Assembly (NCBI GenBank): GCA_900314565.1
Contig: OMVU01000022.1
Location: 1 to 32,357 of the forward strand
From: an uncultured Eubacteriales bacterium
GTDB taxonomy: Bacteria > Bacillota > Clostridia > Lachnospirales > Lachnospiraceae
DNA length: 32,357 nt
Direction: 5' to 3'
Shown here: one piece after another, positions 4,856 through 30,850 of the stretch
Layout: the number at the start of each line of letters is the position of its first letter
How positions within the stretch are numbered: position 1 is the stretch's first letter
The notes under the pieces: generated by a model
What the model was told of the DNA's origin: nothing
What the model saw: only the letters and a program-made list of their open reading frames with translations
The model's database searches: none
Made by a program: the position numbers and the translations under genes

Positions 4856-5093
4856 TTTATTCTTCATCGCGCAATACTCGCGGCTTCAGTCGTGAGATAC
4901 GCGCGCAAAGTGATGCTCGCCTTCATCGTGAGTATAACCTCGCGATGAAGAATAAAGCCTCAGCTACACAATGCTCCACTGGAGCATTGTTACGCATGCT
5001 TAGGCACGGCGTATCGCAGCCGCGCAAAGAGGAAGGTGCTTCGCACATAAGCGCAGCTCGGCAAGAACGCCGAGGCGTTCTTGAAAGTTTAAG
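4856..5093. repeat. Structured intergenic element, copy A
   Basis: A perfect 16-bp inverted repeat (4856-4871 against 4941-4956) encloses 69 nt. A second stem, ATACTCGC with GTGAGTAT, extends it inside. The loop holds GCGCAAAGTGATGCTCGC, directly followed by CTTCATCG (4921-4928), which repeats the left arm (4862-4869). After the stem come a hairpin with 11-bp arms (4968-4978, 4980-4990), then GCGCAAAGAGGAAGGTGCTT and a hairpin CGGCAAGAACGCCGAGGCGTT near 5059-5082. The order of blocks matches copy B at 16087-16264. No protein gene fits. It could be a non-coding RNA, a REP/MITE-like mobile repeat, or both. Confidence 0.75.
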
Positions 5094-5460: not shown

Positions 5461-6735
5461 ATGAATTTAACACAGAATGACAGGCTAAATCAAGTAACAG
5501 CAGACACCTTAGTTGTGGGTGTAGATATCGGATCAGAAACACACTTTGCGAGGTGCTTTGACTGGAGAGGATACGAATTCGGCAAACGGGCATTCCGGTT
5601 CAGTAATACACAGGTCGGATTTCTCACATTTATTCGCTGGGTCGAAGAGATGATGAAGAAGACAGAAAAGACCAAGGTCATTGTTGGCTGTGAACCTACT
5701 GGATGCTACTGGCTGACATTCCAGAAGTTTCTCACAGACAGGGATATCCTTCTTGTGACGGTCAACCCGTACAGTGTGAAGAAATGTAAGGAACTGGATG
5801 ACAACAGTCCTGAGAAGAGTGATCTGAAGGATCCGAAGACAATCGCCGGTCTTGTCAGAGAGGGAAGGTACAGTACTCCCTATCTGCCGGAAGGTGTATA
5901 CGCGGAGATCCGTGAGGCTCAGGTCTGCCGGGATCAGATCATGAAGCAGCACGTGAGGCTGTCAAACCAGATACAGGGATGGCTGCAGAAATACTTTCCT
6001 GAGTATCTGGAGTGTTATAAAGACTTTGATACGGCAAGCGGGATGATGGTGCTGGAACACGCGCCGCTTCCCGAGGACATCATTAAACTCGGAGCAGGAG
6101 GCATCAACGAGCTCTGGAGAAATGCTAAGCTCCGTGCGGCGGGGATAAAGAGGGCAAAGACCCTGGTAGAAGCCGCACAGGGAAGCGTCGGATTATCCGG
6201 AGGGGAAGCTGCAAGGTTGGAGATCTGGTTTCTGATCAATGATTATCAGACAAAGACGAAGCAACTGGAACGGCTTGATGAATTCCTTGCAAAAGAGGTC
6301 CTGAAGGTGCCGCATGTGGAGAAACTGCTCGCCATAAAAGGAGTAGGGCTGAGTACGGTTATCGGTTTTGCTGCGGATGTAGGTGATATCGGACGTTTCA
6401 CTGATCCGAAACAGGTTCAGAAACTTGCCGGGCTGGAGATCACAAAAGCCAGTTCAGGCAAGAAGAAAGGCCAGCCGTGTATCAGCAAGAGGGGCAGGAG
6501 TAGGCTGCGAAGGACGATGTACGAGTCAGCCAGGTCGCTGATCAGTTGGAATGAAGCGTTCTCAGAGGTGTTCATGTATTACCGGTACAGAACGCGGAAT
6601 CCTCTTGGCAGCATGCAGGCAAAGATAGCTGTGGCCTGCAAGGCAATCAGGGTCTTCTACACGATCCTAAAAACGGGATGTGAGTTTGATGCGGAGAAAC
6701 TTCGCAGAGATATCATCCGCCCGGAAGCAGTATAA
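5461..6735 (+). CDS. IS110-family transposase (DEDD recombinase)
   Basis: The 424-residue protein has the N-terminal RuvC-like DEDD domain: D22 (VVGVDIGSETHF), E78 (GCEPTGCYW), D121 and D124 (SDLKDPKTIAGL). A coiled-coil linker follows, then the C-terminal Transposase_20 domain (LAIKGVGLSTVIGFAADVGD, FTDPKQVQKLAGLE, GRSRLRRTMYESA) with a serine that may be the nucleophile. Family members recombine donor and target without terminal repeats, guided by a structured bridge RNA from the element's non-coding end. SD GGAGG at 5449-5453, 7 nt before ATG. Full length and uninterrupted, so likely functional or recently so. Confidence 0.95.
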   Translation: MNLTQNDRLNQVTADTLVVGVDIGSETHFARCFDWRGYEFGKRAFRFSNTQVGFLTFIRWVEEMMKKTEKTKVIVGCEPTGCYWLTFQKFLTDRDILLVTVNPYSVKKCKELDDNSPEKSDLKDPKTIAGLVREGRYSTPYLPEGVYAEIREAQVCRDQIMKQHVRLSNQIQGWLQKYFPEYLECYKDFDTASGMMVLEHAPLPEDIIKLGAGGINELWRNAKLRAAGIKRAKTLVEAAQGSVGLSGGEAARLEIWFLINDYQTKTKQLERLDEFLAKEVLKVPHVEKLLAIKGVGLSTVIGFAADVGDIGRFTDPKQVQKLAGLEITKASSGKKKGQPCISKRGRSRLRRTMYESARSLISWNEAFSEVFMYYRYRTRNPLGSMQAKIAVACKAIRVFYTILKTGCEFDAEKLRRDIIRPEAV

Positions 6736-15951: not shown

Positions 15952-16086
15952 TACCCTACTATAATACGTGTATAATGAAAAGAGAATGACACCAATCGAT
16001 ATTCAGATAATATAGTGATGAATCGGGATAATTTGGGAGGTACACAGGCTGTCTGTCTTTTATGGAGATATGCCTGAAGCGATATT

Positions 16087-16264
16087 TAATCTCTGACGCA
16101 GAACTCGCATGATTTACTTGTGATATGAATGCGCAAAGTGAAGCTTTGCTCTGACACGGATTACAAAACCCGCGTCAGAGATTAGAGCATCCGACGGATT
16201 TTTCCTGCACAAAGAGGGAGGTGCTTCACACCCTGTACGGCTAGAATGCCGAGGCGCTCTTGAT
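16087..16264. repeat. Structured intergenic element, copy B
   Basis: A perfect 13-bp inverted repeat (16087-16099 against 16172-16184) encloses 72 nt. The loop contains ACTCGC, GTGATAT and GCGCAAAGTGAAGCT, then CTCTGAC (16149-16155), which repeats the left arm (16091-16097). After the stem follow GCACAAAGAGGGAGGTGCTT and CGGCTAGAATGCCGAGGCG. The blocks, spacing and order match copy A, while the stem sequence is entirely different but still self-complementary. The 11-bp-arm hairpin of copy A is absent here. The flanks (15952-16086, 16265-16344) show no gene. Confidence 0.75.
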
Positions 16265-23340: not shown

Positions 23341-23389
23341 GAGACTGCCTTGTTAAATGAGAACCTCACTTAATACGGCAGTCTCTTTT
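23341..23389 (+). terminator. Rho-independent terminator after cstA
   Basis: GAGACTGCC (23341-23349) pairs with GGCAGTCTC (23377-23385); inside, TTAAATGAG pairs with CTCACTTAA with one mismatch. TTTT follows. Confidence 0.85.
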
Positions 23390-23407
23390 GAGCGTTCAGG
23401 AGGAAGT

Positions 23408-24436
23408 ATGTTATTTGCACCGAAGCAGATTGGCAGAAGTTCTCTCTCGCCCGATCATCTGAAGGCAGACAAATCTGCATGCACAAAGGTCGGCCCCTGC
23501 GGACTTGGCCGGGAGGCAATGTATCTCAACAGTTTCTTTATCGACCGGTATTACTATGTAAAATATATCGATGTCGCCCGGGTCTTCAAGCGGGTCGCCA
23601 TGAGCCGCGGCGGGTTTTCCGGGAAAGGCGTTTTCGGTTCTATTCCGTACCTTGTGGTCCAGCTGAAAAATGGCAGCGAGCGGGCCTGCAATTTCAAGTA
23701 TGAGGATGATGTCGACCGATTCCTTGCGGAAATATCACGCTCGCACCCGGAGATTCCGGTGCTGAGCAGGGAGGGAGAGAAAAAGCTCGCGGCGGCCAGA
23801 GCGAAGGAAGAGGCCCGATATGTCAAAAATCTGACGCCGGAAGCCGAAGCTTCCATCGCAGAACTTTTGCGCGCGAAAGAGATCCTCTCTGAGGACAGCG
23901 GGAAGAGCGCCCGCCTGTCTTATTCAGCAAAGCAGAAGAGGACGATCGACCTGATTAATCCGACCTATCGGTATGCGGCGCTCGCGATTTTCCTGCTTGC
24001 AGCGGCAGCATGCGTATTCGGCGTCATCTCCGTATTTCAGCATAAAGGCTATTCCGCCTATTTTATTCTGTTCGGCGCTGCCTTCATGCTCTTTGCTATG
24101 TCGACCAGGGTCATGCCGACCGGGAAGAACAACCGACGTGCGGCGCAGAGAGAATGGGACAAAGCACTTTACGACATGCAGGGATTTGTGTCAGAGCATA
24201 AGGAGATACCGGTGCCTGCGCAGTACGCCCATCCCGCCACGCTTGACCGGATGATCCGCGTGATCCGCGAGGGAAAAGCCGAAAGTGTCGGAAAAGCGTA
24301 CGAGGTCATGAAGGAGGAGCTTCGTGCCATCAACAATCAGGTGACTGTCTCGCAGACAGAGTATGATGAGATCGTGGCGATAAAGCCGATGTTCCTTCTG
24401 TGCGGCTACAGGGATGATCTTGCGGAGACAGCATGA
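23408..24436 (+). CDS. Uncharacterised protein with two membrane helices
   Basis: The 342-residue protein has an N-terminal soluble part rich in beta structure (FIDRYYYVKYIDVARVFKRVAM ... SIPYLVVQLKNGSERACNFKYEDDVDRFL) that resembles a PH-like domain. Two hydrophobic helices (about 188-210 and 214-234) follow, then a soluble helical tail. Its two ends should face the cytoplasm. ATG 23408 follows AGGAGG at 23398-23403; an in-frame start at 23357 would overlap the cstA terminator. I do not recognise a named family. Next in line is the MoxR ATPase, 256 bp on. Confidence 0.75.
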   Translation: MLFAPKQIGRSSLSPDHLKADKSACTKVGPCGLGREAMYLNSFFIDRYYYVKYIDVARVFKRVAMSRGGFSGKGVFGSIPYLVVQLKNGSERACNFKYEDDVDRFLAEISRSHPEIPVLSREGEKKLAAARAKEEARYVKNLTPEAEASIAELLRAKEILSEDSGKSARLSYSAKQKRTIDLINPTYRYAALAIFLLAAAACVFGVISVFQHKGYSAYFILFGAAFMLFAMSTRVMPTGKNNRRAAQREWDKALYDMQGFVSEHKEIPVPAQYAHPATLDRMIRVIREGKAESVGKAYEVMKEELRAINNQVTVSQTEYDEIVAIKPMFLLCGYRDDLAETA

Positions 24437-24692: not shown

Positions 24693-25631
24693 ATGACAGA
24701 CGGGAAGAGAGAGGACATCTTAACAGTTCTTCGTCGGGAAGGAATTCGTGAGGAGCTTCTTAGAGGAGTGGAGGAATTTCGGCGGACATATCCTGTCGAT
24801 GAGGCTGATCGGGAACGGATCCCGCATCCGGAATATATGTATTACGGGAAGAAAGTATGGGAGCAGGCGCTCGCCGCGATCCTTGCCGGCCGGAACCTTC
24901 TGCTCGCCGGTCCGAAGGCGACCGGAAAAAATGTCCTGGCCGAGAATCTCGCTGCAGCCTTCCTGCGGCCTGTCTGGAACGTCTCTTTCCACATCGGAAC
25001 GGACGCATCCTATCTGATCGGGACGGATACATATGACGGGAGCCGCGTCATTTTCAGGGAAGGACCCGTTCTACTTACAGCCTTAAAGGGCGGATTCGGC
25101 GTCCTCGATGAAATCAATATGGCAAAAAATGAAGCCCTCGCCGTCCTCCATGCCGCCCTTGATTTCAGGCGCGTTCTGGATGTTCCGGGATATGACAGGG
25201 TGGAGCTTAAGCCCGAGACCCGATTCATCGCGACAATGAATTACGGGTATGCGGGAACGCGGGAGCTCAACGAAGCGCTCACATCGCGTTTTGCAGTTCT
25301 TGACATGCCTGTCATCTCGGAAGAAGATCTCACGAAGCTGATTCTCGGGCGGTTTCCGGATATGAAAGAGAAGATCTGCAGTCAGTTCGTTCTTCTCTAT
25401 CTTGAAATCAGCAAAAAGGCGGAACATGCGGAAATATCCGAGAGAGCACTTGATCTTCGCGGACTTCTCGATGCGCTCATGCTGATCAGGCAGGGGCTCA
25501 CTTCCGGAGAGGCGCTTGATATGTGTATCGTGAATAAGAGTTTTGACTCTTATGAGCGAGGCCTTATACGGGACTGCGTTCTTGCCAGGATCCCGGATGA
25601 TCTGACGAAAGAGGTCGTGTTCAGGGGATGA
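24693..25631 (+). CDS. MoxR-type AAA+ ATPase
   Basis: The 312-residue protein is an AAA+ ATPase of the MoxR group. Walker A is GPKATGKN at 73-80 (asparagine replaces the usual Thr/Ser after Lys), Walker B VLDE at 137-140, then sensor 1 (FIATMNYGYAGT) and the arginine-finger region (ELNEALTSRF). MoxR proteins act as chaperones that load cofactors or mature complexes together with a VWA partner, which is the next gene. SD AGAGGTGA at 24681-24688. The gene ends in the first unit of a tandem repeat whose later units separate it from the VWA gene. Confidence 0.92.
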   Translation: MTDGKREDILTVLRREGIREELLRGVEEFRRTYPVDEADRERIPHPEYMYYGKKVWEQALAAILAGRNLLLAGPKATGKNVLAENLAAAFLRPVWNVSFHIGTDASYLIGTDTYDGSRVIFREGPVLLTALKGGFGVLDEINMAKNEALAVLHAALDFRRVLDVPGYDRVELKPETRFIATMNYGYAGTRELNEALTSRFAVLDMPVISEEDLTKLILGRFPDMKEKICSQFVLLYLEISKKAEHAEISERALDLRGLLDALMLIRQGLTSGEALDMCIVNKSFDSYERGLIRDCVLARIPDDLTKEVVFRG

Positions 25632-25720: not shown

Positions 25721-27538
25721 ATGATCAAGAGAAATTATTCGGGAAATCAGAGGCAGGCCTGCAACGTCATCTGGAATGCCGCCGGACGTTATGATTACGA
25801 TCCGCCGTTCATGGCGTTCAGGACGAACGGAACACCGGATTTTTATTTTAATATGATAATCGGGTTCGTCGAAAAGTATTTCGACAGCGGTCGTGTGGAA
25901 GCTTTTCTGGAAAGTTACAGGCAGGACCGCCGGGCGGATGAGTTCGACGATCTTCTATGGCTCGGGATTGAGAACTGTGTATACGAGAAGGAGCTTGCGT
26001 CCCGCCCGATCCTCTCTGCACTCAGAAAAAAGCGCGGAGAAGAATTCTTCCGGTACGCGCAGGACATGTCGGAACAGCAGATGATGCTTCAGAGCATGCC
26101 GGTCTGGAACCAGCAGGAGGCACGATGGGCTGAGGTGACCGGCAGACGTATGCCGCTTCTTTCGGGCAGGGAGAAGCGGATACAGGAATCCCTGCGCTTT
26201 CCGGGAAGCTTCGGGACAGATGACCTGATTCAGGCAATGGGGGATTTCCTCGGCACATTTTTTAATTATGACCCGGGCAGAGTATCCAAAAGCCGGATCG
26301 ATCCGGTCAGGAGCCGGTTCTTTCATTTTCTTCACAGGGGGAGACCCGTGCGGGATCTTCTGATCGTACCGGCAGGCGGAACGGTATCCGAGAACGGGCT
26401 CGTCACGCTTCCGCATGATGCGGACCTGCGCCGCGGATCCGGGACAGCGGAGAAGGATGAGAAATATATACGCGGATGTTTTGGGAACTGCGTGTACGAT
26501 GAAGCGAGGATGGAGATGCTTCGTGCAGAGGTCTGCACAGGGGCGGATCGAAACGTGAGACTCTGGCTTTCGAGCGCCGGAAGAATGTCCTTTGGTACGG
26601 AGACCGGTGACAGGGATATCCGCAAGGAGCAGACGGAAAAAAGGGATAGAACTTTCGCAAAGAAACTGTCAGACAGCTGTGAAAGGGATATCCGAAAGAC
26701 TCTGTCGGACAGAAAGCGGCAGGCAGAAAAAAGTCTGGAGTTTTATAAGACATGGCAGCTTCCCGCCCGGGAAGCGGTGCGGAAGCTTGCGCAGGAGACG
26801 GAGGCAATCCTTGCGACGTACATGCGTCATCTGCCGACAGGTGCAAGGGCGGGGAGTCTGTGTGCAGAAAAGGCCTGGCGCCTGCCCGTTCTCTCGGACC
26901 CGGCCGTCTTCCTGAAACCGGGTGACGAGACAGAGCATCATATCACTGCGGACCTGCTGCTCGACGCATCTCAGTCAAGGATGAATGATCAGGAAGTGAT
27001 CGCAGCCGAGGCCTATATCACTGCCAAGGCGCTCAGTCGGGCCGGAATTCCCGTAAGGGTCGTGGATTTCCATTCGCTGAGAGGATACACTGTCCTGGAA
27101 ATCCTGAAAGATTACGGGGAGGACCCTGAAGGGATTTTCCGCTATTTTGCAGGCGGGTGGAACCGTGACAGCGCTGCCCTTAAGTGCATGCGGGCGCTGC
27201 TTCATGATCAAACAGGAGACCCGGATCATATCCGTCTTCTTTTTGTTCTGACGGACGCGTCCCCCAACGACGATCTGCCGATCCCTCCCACGGGAAATGA
27301 AAAGCGTCCCCGTGAATATGAAGGCGCCGCAGGCGTCAGGGAAACGGCTGCGGCGGTAAAGGCTCTGCGTGAAGATGGAGTTTGTACGGCGGCTGTCTTT
27401 CACGGCGCGTCGATTCATCTGGAAAATGTCCCTCAAATCTACGGAGACTGTTTTACCTGCGTGCGTCGGATGAGGCAGCTCTCGGACGGGATCCGGATCC
27501 TGATCGAGCAGATGCTTCGAAATTACAGGCGGGATTGA
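25721..27538 (+). CDS. VWA-domain protein, MoxR partner
   Basis: The 605-residue protein has a long N-terminal region without known motif, a basic helical middle (about 305-360) and a C-terminal von Willebrand A domain. The MIDAS metal site is D415-A-S417-Q-S419 followed by T511-D512 in FVLTDASPND. VWA proteins of this layout (CoxE-like) pair with MoxR ATPases in metal insertion or complex maturation. ATG 25721 directly follows AGGAG, too close for a normal SD, which fits an ancestral start coupled to the upstream stop. No signal or membrane span. Confidence 0.85.
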   Translation: MIKRNYSGNQRQACNVIWNAAGRYDYDPPFMAFRTNGTPDFYFNMIIGFVEKYFDSGRVEAFLESYRQDRRADEFDDLLWLGIENCVYEKELASRPILSALRKKRGEEFFRYAQDMSEQQMMLQSMPVWNQQEARWAEVTGRRMPLLSGREKRIQESLRFPGSFGTDDLIQAMGDFLGTFFNYDPGRVSKSRIDPVRSRFFHFLHRGRPVRDLLIVPAGGTVSENGLVTLPHDADLRRGSGTAEKDEKYIRGCFGNCVYDEARMEMLRAEVCTGADRNVRLWLSSAGRMSFGTETGDRDIRKEQTEKRDRTFAKKLSDSCERDIRKTLSDRKRQAEKSLEFYKTWQLPAREAVRKLAQETEAILATYMRHLPTGARAGSLCAEKAWRLPVLSDPAVFLKPGDETEHHITADLLLDASQSRMNDQEVIAAEAYITAKALSRAGIPVRVVDFHSLRGYTVLEILKDYGEDPEGIFRYFAGGWNRDSAALKCMRALLHDQTGDPDHIRLLFVLTDASPNDDLPIPPTGNEKRPREYEGAAGVRETAAAVKALREDGVCTAAVFHGASIHLENVPQIYGDCFTCVRRMRQLSDGIRILIEQMLRNYRRD

Positions 27539-28520: not shown

Positions 28521-28597
28521 AGCTGTGGTACTCTTTTCTTAATTCTAATGCGTTGTGCTTTTTGCGCCGCATATGTTCGCATGGGGGAAATATCAGT

Positions 28598-30850
28598 ATG
28601 ACGGAACTGGAAGCGCTTGTCGAAGAAGCACTGTATCAGACAGTCCGGACGATCGATGACAAAAAGAGCATCGTTCTGGATACTTCCAATGGTTTATTAT
28701 ATTTTAAAAAGATCTTATCTGTCTATAATATCTCCGTCTTTTCGTGGCTCAGGGAGAATAAAAACCCGAAGATCCCGCAGATCAAAAGCTTCCGGCAGGA
28801 CGGGGATCAGCTGATCGTCATCGAAGAGTTCATACAGGGGAAGACACTGGACGAGAAGCTCGAGGAGGGAGGACTTTCATTTTCCGAGAAGAAGCGGATC
28901 CTCATGGATATCTGTGAAGGACTCACGTTCCTGCACGGTGCGAAACCGCCCATTATCCACAGAGATCTAAAAGCTTCCAATATCATGCTCACTGAGGACG
29001 GGAATGTTAAGATCATTGATTATGACGCTGCGAAGATCTACGTTAAAAATGAAAAGTCCGACACTGTCCTGATCGGGACCCATGGCATCGCGGCTCCCGA
29101 ACAGTACGGATTTGCCCAGTCCGATGCCCGCACGGACATCTATGCGCTGGGGCAGCTCATCCGAAAAATGATTCCCGAATCTCCGGAAGCCATGGTCATC
29201 GCGGAGAGAGCGACACAGATGGAGCCGGGAAAGCGCTATTCCAGCGCAGCGGCGCTTCAGAAGGAGATCGGGCGGCTGAAAGAGCCGGGGAGGAAGAAGG
29301 GAATACGGATCCCGGGTATTTCGAGTCCGCGCAGGCCAGTGAGGATCCTATCCCGATGCGGTGCGGCCGCAATGCTGGCGCTCATGATTTTCCTTGGGTA
29401 TCATTTTTGGTGGTACCCGGAAGTGACGGTCAGGCGGCCGGCATACGAGGCCGGATGCGCAGCCCTGGAACGAGGGGAGTATGAAGAAGCCCTGCAGCAG
29501 TTTGCCATCTGCGGGACGGGGTACAGGAATACGGCTTCGCTCATTGCCCGTGCGAACAACGACAAACTGGTTGCAGGATTTCCGAAGAACGGGACGGCCG
29601 AAATGCTTGGGGAGGCAATACCGGAGTATATTGGGCAGGTCAAAGCCATTTCGCTGACAGATGAACAGAAGGCGGTCATGAAGACAAAGGCGGAAGAGCT
29701 TTTTGCAACGCTGATCGGAAAAGACCGACGAAGCGAGGCGGAGGAGTATGCCTCGGAGTTTGCGGATGCTTTCGGCGATGAGGACGACTGGAAAGACATT
29801 GTGGAGTATTCCGCGATCACTGCAGAGAGAAGGAAGGAGAATCCGAAAGAGACGCTCGGAAAAGTAAGTGCCATGAGGGAGCGGGGAGCGTATGAGTCGG
29901 AGGAGCATTTTTCTTCCTGTGTATCGTGGTACCTGAAGCAGGCCAAAATTGAACAGGATGCTTATAAGTCCCACACCAGCGCAGCGCATGCGGAGAGTGC
30001 GCTTCTCATTTACACGGGAATGGGGGACAGCATTCCGGAGGCGGTCACTGCGAAGAATGAATTCATAGAACAAATGGGGAAGGATGCGGAAAGTCTTGCC
30101 TCGTCGAAGGAATATGAGAAGGCAGCTTCCATCTACGACGTTCTTGGGGAATATGGTCTGAAAGACGGAAAAGAAAAGGCGCAGGAGATGCGCTATTCGC
30201 TTGCTGAAGAAAAGTACGGGGCAGAGGATTATGCCAAAGCTGCCGACATTTTCCAAATGATTTCGGGATATCGGGATGCGGATGAGCGCTGTCGGCAGTC
30301 CATGTATAAGGAAGGTCTGAAGCAGGAGGAAAAGAAGGACTATGTAAAGGCGGTCAAGGCATATGAGCAGATTCCGGGCTACAGTGATGCGGATGACAGA
30401 AAGCTTTTGGCCATGTACAGCTACTGCGTCGAAAAGAAAGATGATCCGACGGATGATGTCTATTCCTATCTGGACGAGCTTACAGCGGCAGGATATTCCG
30501 GAACAGAGGCGCTCAAAGCGGATATATATGCATGGAAGGGGGATCTTACCTGGCACCCGGCCTACAGTATGGGAAATATGCAGGGCGCGAACATAGAACT
30601 TACGCTTCGCGGTGGGAGAAAAGGTGCTTCGACGCATGTGACGTTCCGGATGATGAATCATACTAACGGACAGTCCTCCTCCTATACGACGGGAGAGGCT
30701 TATAAGGCCGGAGAAATGGCGGGCTGCGGTTATTCCGGAAGTGACATGGGCACCGAGTTTTTTGATCAGGAAGTGACGATAGAGGCTTTTGCAGATGACG
30801 GGCAGCTGATCGCGTCGGGGAGTGGGAAGCTTTTTGGTACGGGATGGTGA
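28598..30850 (+). CDS. Transmembrane Ser/Thr protein kinase
   Basis: The 750-residue protein has a cytoplasmic kinase domain (about 1-230): catalytic loop HRDLKASN from His121, Asp123 as base, and DYD at 141-143 in place of the usual DFG, then APEQYG. A membrane helix (about 253-273) leads to an extracellular part with tetratricopeptide-like helices (AGCAALERGEYEEALQQF; YAKAADIFQMISGYRDADERC; YVKAVKAYEQIPGYSDADDRK) and a C-terminal beta-rich region (about 640-750). ATG 28598 follows GGGGGAAA. The N-lobe is short and its glycine loop is not obvious; the ATP lysine is probably in LLYFKKIL. There are no PASTA repeats, so it is not PrkC-like. Confidence 0.88.
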   Translation: MTELEALVEEALYQTVRTIDDKKSIVLDTSNGLLYFKKILSVYNISVFSWLRENKNPKIPQIKSFRQDGDQLIVIEEFIQGKTLDEKLEEGGLSFSEKKRILMDICEGLTFLHGAKPPIIHRDLKASNIMLTEDGNVKIIDYDAAKIYVKNEKSDTVLIGTHGIAAPEQYGFAQSDARTDIYALGQLIRKMIPESPEAMVIAERATQMEPGKRYSSAAALQKEIGRLKEPGRKKGIRIPGISSPRRPVRILSRCGAAAMLALMIFLGYHFWWYPEVTVRRPAYEAGCAALERGEYEEALQQFAICGTGYRNTASLIARANNDKLVAGFPKNGTAEMLGEAIPEYIGQVKAISLTDEQKAVMKTKAEELFATLIGKDRRSEAEEYASEFADAFGDEDDWKDIVEYSAITAERRKENPKETLGKVSAMRERGAYESEEHFSSCVSWYLKQAKIEQDAYKSHTSAAHAESALLIYTGMGDSIPEAVTAKNEFIEQMGKDAESLASSKEYEKAASIYDVLGEYGLKDGKEKAQEMRYSLAEEKYGAEDYAKAADIFQMISGYRDADERCRQSMYKEGLKQEEKKDYVKAVKAYEQIPGYSDADDRKLLAMYSYCVEKKDDPTDDVYSYLDELTAAGYSGTEALKADIYAWKGDLTWHPAYSMGNMQGANIELTLRGGRKGASTHVTFRMMNHTNGQSSSYTTGEAYKAGEMAGCGYSGSDMGTEFFDQEVTIEAFADDGQLIASGSGKLFGTGW

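What the first reader, a model, noticed from the sequence alone, without database searches (positions are those of the whole stretch)
4856..5093. Two-copy structured element whose copy-specific sequence appears three times
Copy A (4856-5093) and copy B (16087-16264) share ordered blocks: GCGCAAAGTGAWGCT, then CAAAGAGGRAGGTGCTTC, then a hairpin with CGAG loop. Their outer stems differ completely in sequence (CTTCATCG against CTCTGAC) yet each is perfectly self-complementary over 13-16 bp. In both copies the left-arm sequence recurs as a direct copy just after the conserved core (4921-4928; 16149-16155). So the right arm could pair with either of two identical partners, 69-72 nt away or about 14 nt away. 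That is stem covariation plus a two-state geometry, the mark of an RNA or of a programmable mobile unit with a variable guide-like segment.
Basis: partly seen in the sequence, partly recalled or inferred. Interest (0 to 1): 0.72.

Follow-up and report, generated by a model that had tools for sequence, protein, structure and literature searches.

The report
Jumping DNA repeat with target-matching guide
The two copies belong to a family of about 200-base jumping DNA repeats spread through this gut bacterium, whose short built-in guide sequence changes in step with the DNA site they sit beside, which looks like a natural example of a mobile element retuned to new target sites.

Summary
The host genome (4.2 Mb) has 86 matches to the shared core (1 for the reversed control) and 106 left-module matches at E<=1e-5. 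Copy A (4861-5085) is a complete 225-nt unit; copy B (16090-16264) is decayed. Three sites lack the unit in a relative, without target duplication. Copies occur in 14 of 37 genomes of the genus searched and 0 of 24 from other families of the order. The left end has the anatomy of a non-autonomous IS200/IS605-type (single-strand, TnpA-mobilised) element: the four bases before its hairpin fit the flanking tetranucleotide by the IS608 rule (59 of 74 copies; shuffles average 30), and where the target differs (TTAT, TTAA, TCAT, TCAA, ACAA) the guide differs too. The outer stem and the competing internal repeat both exist and covary; the right arm also complements the target flank, so target plus left end could be masked or released. 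That switch is inference. Unresolved: the right end does not obey the guide rule, one left-end type fails it, and the mobilising transposase is unidentified. RNA and bridge-RNA readings are not supported.

The parts
4856..4860 (+). TTTAT, target site flanking copy A (left cleavage tetranucleotide TTAT = 4857-4860); outside the element
   Evidence: empty sites
4861..5085 (+). copy A: complete 225-nt element, left-end type T1, ending in TTGAA
4873..4876 (+). AATA, guide tetranucleotide at the 5' foot of the left hairpin
4877..4896 (+). left-end hairpin (8 bp, with G opposite T at stem position 4, as in 71 of 74 copies of this hairpin family)
4921..4928 (+). CTTCATCG, internal direct repeat of the left arm; pairs with the right arm in the local hairpin
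4941..4956 (+). right arm CGCGATGAAGAATAAA; complements left end plus target flank (16 bp), or the internal repeat
4962..5006 (+). optional middle module with a palindrome; absent in many copies, including copy B
5007..5085 (+). 3' module: conserved bulged stem-loop plus right-end hairpin; shared by left-end types T1, T2 and T3 in this genome; the bulged stem of copy A itself is partly disrupted
5062..5083 (+). right-end hairpin CAAGAACGC...GCGTTCTTG; the element ends at TTGAA (5081-5085)
16085..16089 (+). TTTAA, target site flanking copy B
16090..16264 (+). copy B: decayed 175-nt element of type T2, without the middle module
16149..16155 (+). CTCTGAC, internal repeat of the left arm in copy B
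16172..16186 (+). right arm of copy B

Best explanation
A modular family of non-autonomous mobile elements that work like IS200/IS605-family elements (PATE-like). Shown: units of 125-230 nt (26 measured) inserted without target duplication directly 3' of a type-specific tetranucleotide; the tetranucleotide at the foot of the left hairpin obeys the IS200/IS605 guide rule and differs with the target in several types; left and 3' modules are conserved structures with compensatory changes. Inferred: a TnpA acting in trans, perhaps from the resident IS605-type element whose left hairpin has the same sequence as that of some copies, excises and inserts them as single strands. Inferred further: the right arm, which also complements target plus left end, can either mask the left cleavage site (outer stem) or be captured by the internal repeat (local hairpin), so the left end has an off and an on state.
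For: Copy number and spread; 14 of 61 genomes (own plus 13 of 36 other same-genus genomes, 0 of 24 from other families). Sites without the unit in G034 at L010 (equal-length join, two substitutions), L005 (one-base indel) and L009 (left flank TTTTTTAT present, right flank diverged; also absent in G005). Guide/target: 59 of 74 left ends of the first hairpin family fit the full rule, shuffled pairings mean 30.1 and maximum 41 in 10,000; C4 against N4 Fisher p 4.7e-11; C2 against N1 p 8e-8; at the level of types 7 of 8 fit, 2 of 40,320 permutations reach that. The rule rests on GL AAAG with CL TTAC, GR GAAT with CR TCAA and the pairs A+16:T-3, A+17:T-4, from PMC5934647 (passages; section 16); the fourth-base part is my reading of those sequences. 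The right arm matches the 4 nt beyond the element border in 85 of 122 copies. Hairpin identity with the resident IS605-type left end: of 14 exact matches of the 20-mer in 61 genomes, 13 lie in these elements and 1 in the IS605-type element. A T4 unit is nested in another repeat (L308/L321). The base after TTGA is A in 23 and T in 3 of 26 units, so the border is TTGAA/TTGAT. T-runs: 36 of 114 left flanks have at least 4 T in the 6 nt before the target tetranucleotide, control 4.
Against: The right end does not fit: T1-T3 ends (TGAA) have CAAG at the hairpin foot (first two bases fit, the fourth does not), and T4 ends (TTTAC) have no fitting guide that I could see. Type T3b fails the left rule (ATAT with GATG), and 15 of 74 copies of the first family do not fit. 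No element carrying its own tnpA was found, and the resident candidate differs outside the hairpin; in the own genome the exact 20-mer occurs only in that element, the own copies having variants of it. The rule, border and types were fitted after seeing the data and copies within a type are related, so the p-values are too optimistic. Covariation controls are mixed: for the local stem 305 of 500 shuffles reach the number of pairs changed on both sides, and for both stems the number of further pair types is at or below the shuffles. The five target base pairs flip the preferred fold in 17 of 37 T1, 1 of 10 T2 and 1 of 5 T4 copies, and in both T3 copies computed (the left hairpin was left out of these energies).
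Confidence: 0.78

Rival explanations
1. A REP/RAYT-like system: repeats spread by a domesticated TnpA(REP) that recognises tagged hairpins.
For: High copy number, intergenic, HuH-type hairpin with a tetranucleotide at its foot; Y1_Tnp proteins in longer reading frames (212-296 aa) in five of the 14 element-bearing genomes searched.
Against: The longer Y1 frames were not listed for the own genome or for G034, G023, G021, G018, where copies are many. The foot tetranucleotide varies with the target instead of being a fixed GTAG/CGTC tag. The six loci with longer frames show no element motif apart from one weak left-arm match in L258.
Confidence: 0.08
2. A TIR-bounded MITE moved by an ordinary DDE transposase, with the left module (perfect 13-16 bp inverted repeats) as the mobile unit.
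For: The outer stem looks like terminal inverted repeats and its ends read TTTA...TAAA.
Against: The unit missing at the three sites runs from the left arm to the far right end, so the right arm is internal; there is no target duplication; type T4 has TTCA with TGA(G) or TG, which breaks any TA duplication.
Confidence: 0.05
3. A structured regulatory RNA, or an RNA scaffold such as a TnpB omega-RNA, with the 3' module as its conserved domain.
For: The 3' module has a conserved bulged stem with compensatory changes (8 of 27 pairs changed on both sides) and ends at the right border, where an omega-RNA guide would begin.
Against: No Rfam match in the window. Of 10 loci found with the TnpB zinc-ribbon family in 9 genomes, none has this module directly behind a TnpB gene: L348 has it near a sub-cut-off hit in a 61-aa frame, L347 and L349 have single weak motif matches, and L346 has the other 3' module about 1.2 kb away. 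35 of 114 copies sit behind a terminator-like hairpin.
Confidence: 0.06
4. The non-coding part of the IS110 element next to copy A (bridge RNA).
For: An IS110-family transposase lies at 5461-6735 just downstream.
Against: Around a hundred copies of the repeat exist but only one full-length homologue of this transposase; of its five other, partial or distant, matches (L238-L242) only L242 shows a motif, one weak left-arm match.
Confidence: 0.02

Closest known systems
IS608 / ISDra2 (IS200/IS605 family), including engineered IS608 with extended left-end/target pairing (PMC5934647; passages and sections 13, 15, 16)
   Same: Insertion 3' of a tetranucleotide kept in the left flank; guide at the 5' foot of the left hairpin fits the target by the same rule; a second hairpin 3' of the left palindrome overlaps bases that could pair with the target.
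   Different: No transposase gene; the second hairpin's 3' arm here is also complementary to target plus left end over 13-16 bp; several left-end types share one 3' module; right-end guide rule not met.
PATEs of Haloquadratum walsbyi and the PATE-like element of Halanaerobium (PMC3119063, PMC7290912; passages read)
   Same: Transposase-free, near-terminal palindromes like those of IS605-type elements; in Haloquadratum a short target sequence at the 5' end and internal (core) deletions.
   Different: Here around a hundred copies in one genome, modular, with covarying alternative stems and different targets in different types.
REP / REPIN with TnpA(REP) (PMC8266576, abstract and outline; PMC6006769, passages)
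   Same: High-copy extragenic hairpins with a tetranucleotide at the hairpin foot.
   Different: No fixed GTAG/CGTC tag; larger composite unit; no linked TnpA(REP) seen.
BOX and EFAR modular repeats (recalled, not seen in any call)
   Same: Modular intergenic repeats with combinable parts, often near gene ends.
   Different: Target-guide covariation of the present kind is not recalled for them.

Membership tests
IS200/IS605-type (PATE-like, non-autonomous) | Insertion 3' of a specific tetra/pentanucleotide, without target duplication | tested here: met
   Three sites without the unit in G034 (right flank alignable at two of them); flank composition of 74 left ends
IS200/IS605-type (PATE-like, non-autonomous) | Subterminal left hairpin with a guide tetranucleotide that fits the flanking target | tested here: met
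   59 of 74 copies of the first hairpin family, 7 of 8 types; T3b fails
IS200/IS605-type (PATE-like, non-autonomous) | Right-end hairpin with a guide that fits the terminal tetranucleotide | tested here: inconclusive
   First two guide bases fit for TGAA ends (CA/TG), the fourth does not; T4 ends (TTTAC) do not fit; by inspection
IS200/IS605-type (PATE-like, non-autonomous) | Mobilised by a Y1 TnpA | not testable with these tools
   Y1_Tnp genes exist (9 matches in own genome); one IS605-type element shares the hairpin; activity untested
REP/REPIN with TnpA(REP) | Fixed GTAG or CGTC tag at the hairpin foot | tested here: not met
   Commonest foot tetranucleotides per type are AATA, AATT, GATA, GATT, AAGA, GTGT
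IS110 bridge RNA | Lies in the non-coding end of IS110 elements | tested here: not met
   One full-length homologue against around a hundred repeats; motif scan
TnpB omega-RNA | Structured 3' module directly downstream of a tnpB gene | tested here: not met
   0 of 10 TnpB-family loci
Rfam families | Match at gathering score | tested here: not met
   0 matches in the window

The most novel reading that the evidence does not exclude
The left end is a DNA switch: one arm can pair either with the inserted element's own target flank and left end (masking the cleavage site over up to 16 bp) or with an internal decoy copy, so the element senses whether it is joined to a matching target and regulates its own excision; and it is a natural form of the extended base-pair targeting that has been engineered in IS608, with target switching by covarying guides in the wild.
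Probability: 0.28. Interest if true: 0.75.

Novelty: new variant of a known kind. Interest (0 to 1): 0.5.

Why it matters
IS608 targeting has been reprogrammed in the laboratory by changing its guide. Here a family in one bacterial genus seems to have done it repeatedly in nature, with intact pairs of target and guide: TTAT/AATA and TTAA/AATT in the window's own genome, TCAT/GATA and TCAA/GATT in a relative. That gives ready-made pairs for testing the rule, and a conserved competing-stem design at the left end that none of the passages I read describes. It also explains a large class of intergenic repeats in these Lachnospiraceae.

Tried and rejected
RNA reading: Rfam search of the window, no match. 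Autonomous parent: 36 held Y1_Tnp loci from 14 genomes searched and 10 TnpB-family loci from 9 genomes searched were scanned for element motifs; none is an element with its own transposase. L243 looked like one (tnpA between left and 3' modules) but is an IS200-type element inserted in the right arm, in the opposite orientation. L267 holds an ordinary T2 copy about 0.6 kb from a fragment of a Y1 gene. IS110 linkage rejected. A strict perfect-stem terminator test gave only 6 of 114 (shuffles mean 0.95, maximum 3); a folding-based test gave 35 of 114 against 6; so terminators are a common but minority site. A first automatic choice of hairpin feet misplaced the foot in T2 and T4b by one base because the stem extends there, giving rule counts of 1 of 35 (T2) and 3 of 9 (T4); the counts used come, where the foot is anchored at the conserved CTC. 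In one search the T1 and T3 sets also hold many look-alikes found by loose start patterns (36 of 120 and 25 of 78 fit), T5 1 of 2, T3b 0 of 7. In one search the T3/T5 rows are counted at several overlapping offsets, so only the first hairpin family (74 copies) was used for the per-copy test. Folding with hard constraints did not do what was meant and was discarded; one search's local hairpin for T3 was mis-registered and redone. The right-end guide was searched for by eye in both end types and not found. No match in the plasmid or phage collections. Of the five sites searched in relatives, L048 holds remnants of other copies and L033 was not inspected beyond its match table. A comparison of the resident TnpA with other Y1 frames gave no close full-length relative: best 46% over 125 aa, fragments 67% over 45-51 aa. 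Literature: the listings (one search returned none) showed no paper that by title or start of abstract describes this repeat or a natural left-end stem that covaries with the target; subscription papers are not in that library.

Full report
What was checked. The two copies are present as described. A covariance model of the left module (15 sequences, including both copies) scores them at 107.9 and 79.8 bits; apart from their own reverse strands nothing else in the window exceeds 13.9 bits. Element borders are 4861-5085 and 16090-16264.

Copy number and spread. Copy A as a DNA query has 115 matching pieces in the host genome, many of them palindrome echoes of the same copies (40 of 291 candidates scored). 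The 18-base core has 86 matches against 1 for its reversed control. The left-module model, which covers types T1, T2 and T4, has 134 matches at E<=0.01 and 106 at E<=1e-5 (150 of 1688 candidates scored). In relatives, 14 of 61 genomes match at E<=0.001: the own genome, 13 of 36 others of the genus, and 0 of 24 from other families of the order.

Anatomy. The family is modular. A left module comes in at least five sequence types: T1 TCTTCATCGCG, T2 TCTCTGACGC, T3 CTCAGTGGGG, T4 TCTTCAAC, T5 CTCACTCGGGG. An optional palindromic middle module follows. The 3' module ends in a hairpin and TTGAA or TTGAT (A in 23 and T in 3 of 26 measured units of 125-230 nt); T4 units end in TTTAC with a different hairpin. 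Copies with internal deletions that keep both ends are frequent in the printed sets.

Mobility and borders. Flanks of five own-genome insertions were searched in ten relatives. In G034 the L010 site reads CCATTTTAAATGATTTTTTCC where the own genome has CCATTTTAT|element|TTGATTTTTTCC: equal length, two substitutions, no duplication. The L005 site fits with a one-base indel. At L009 the left flank with TTTTTTAT is present and the right flank has diverged; G005 also lacks the unit there. At L048 the relatives G034 and G005 carry remnants of other copies and give no clean join; the L033 site was not inspected beyond its match table. A T4 unit sits inside another repeat with the same borders (L308/L321). 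Tandem units start directly behind TTGAA or TTGAT. About a third of left flanks look like intrinsic terminators ending in the T-run (35 of 114 against 6 in a control 240-300 nt upstream; a stricter test gave 6 of 114 with shuffles at 0.95).

Guide and target. In IS608 a tetranucleotide at the 5' foot of the left hairpin pairs with the tetranucleotide left of the insertion (PMC5934647, passages, sections 13, 15 and 16; also PMC6006769, passages). I read the rule as guide bases 1-2 = reverse complement of target bases 1-2 and guide base 4 = complement of target base 4; it holds for both IS608 ends as quoted. The left ends here give TTAT/AATA (T1), TTAA/AATT (T2), TCAT/GATA and TCAA/GATT (T4), TTAT/AAGA (T3), ACAA/GTGT (T5, one copy), and TGAA/CATT in the resident IS605-type element of the same genome. 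Among 74 distinct left ends with the first hairpin family (49 T1, 18 T2, 7 T4), 59 fit the full rule; shuffled pairings average 30.1 with a maximum of 41 in 10,000. Seven of eight types fit, T3b (ATAT/GATG) does not; 2 of 40,320 permutations reach seven. Types and border were recognised by inspection, so these numbers describe more than they test. T4 is the cleanest case: TCAT/GATA in 3 of 3 and TCAA/GATT in 4 of 4 copies, three of the latter from the same genome as the former.

The hairpin. In 71 of 74 copies stem position 4 is G opposite T, while the next pair varies (T-A 40, T-G 23, C-G 11). The 20-mer CTCGTGACTTTAGTCGTGAG occurs 14 times in 61 genomes: 13 times in these elements in relatives and once, in the own genome, in the left end of an IS605-type element with tnpA and tnpB. 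Own-genome copies carry variants of this hairpin.

Two stems. On an alignment of T1, T2 and T4 left modules (A1, 15 sequences, all rows verified) the outer stem (16 pairs, including 5 with the target flank) is 97.1% paired with changes on both sides at 8 pairs; the local stem of internal repeat and right arm (12 pairs) is 94.4% paired with changes on both sides at 6. For the outer stem plus left hairpin, 0 of 500 shuffles reach the observed paired percentage, covariation score or cells changed on both sides, 4 of 500 reach the number of pairs changed on both sides, and 500 of 500 reach the number of further pair types. For the local stem the same measures give 0, 0, 0, 305 and 498 of 500. Sliding the partners by 1-3 columns destroys the pairing in both. 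The structure was read off these sequences, so slid controls favour it. The two stems use the same right arm and exclude each other. The right arm also matches the 4 nt outside the border in 85 of 122 left modules and the internal repeat is found in 91 of 122. With DNA parameters and without the left hairpin, outer stem, outer stem without target pairs, and local hairpin come out at -13.0, -8.5 and -10.3 kcal/mol for copy A. Over all computed copies the target pairs flip the preference in 17 of 37 T1, 1 of 10 T2 and 1 of 5 T4, and in both T3 copies computed. So a target-sensing switch is possible for T1 and T3 and weakly supported for T2 and T4. Engineered IS608 with extra left-end/target pairing became site-specific, and a hairpin introduced over the pairing bases reduced that specificity (PMC5934647, sections 13 and 15), which makes the idea testable; in that design the extra pairing lies upstream of the target tetranucleotide, whereas here it spans the cleavage site.

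3' module. Ten sequences (A4) show 8 of 27 pairs with changes on both sides and 95.9% pairing; 0 of 500 shuffles reach these or the covariation score, 493 of 500 reach the number of further pair types. By RNA parameters 11 of 12 modules, two T4 ones included, fold into the same bulged stem; copy A does not. Its function is unknown. It is not attached to TnpB genes in the 10 loci examined.

What is missing. The right end does not show a fitting guide, no autonomous element was found, and no TnpA has been shown to act. I therefore say that the unit works like an IS200/IS605 non-autonomous element at its left end, and treat full membership as open.

Literature. PMC5934647: passages and sections 13, 15, 16. 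PMC3119063, PMC6006769 and PMC7290912: passages. PMC8266576: abstract and outline. All others: search listings only. EFAR and BOX elements are recalled; one search with the term EFAR listed nothing on them.

Noticed in passing
window 5461-6735: Single full-length IS110-family transposase directly downstream of copy A; the five other matches in the genome are partial or distant.
   Followed up: partly
L243 780-1900: An IS200-type element has inserted inside a repeat's right arm at TTTAT|TCTTC, the same junction sequence that the repeats themselves use as target.
   Followed up: partly
L142, L307, L309, L324 (and L110, L039): A second 3' module (GCAGGGATTCGG ... CCGAATCCCGCGCC) with an alternative right-end hairpin (CAATTCTCGCGAGCGAGAATTGAA or CAAGTCTCGCGAGCGAGACTTGAA), seen near or joined to T3-type left ends.
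   Followed up: no
L013, L068, L136: Extra palindromic module (TTATCGGAAGTTCC ... TCTCATAATAAAAGCC or similar) between left and 3' modules, itself ending in a stem that restores AATAAAAGCC.
   Followed up: no
L065, L306, L309, L311, L214: Type T3b-like left ends (ATAT|CTCAGTG) whose hairpin foot does not fit the guide rule as defined here.
   Followed up: partly
L252, L253, L258, L259, L265, L266: Y1_Tnp-family matches in longer frames (212-296 aa) in genomes G033, G024, G012, G003, G017; possibly TnpA(REP)-like.
   Followed up: partly
window 28553-30850: Protein kinase-domain protein after an AAA_5 ATPase (24693-25631) and two proteins without Pfam match (23357-24436, 25721-27538).
   Followed up: no
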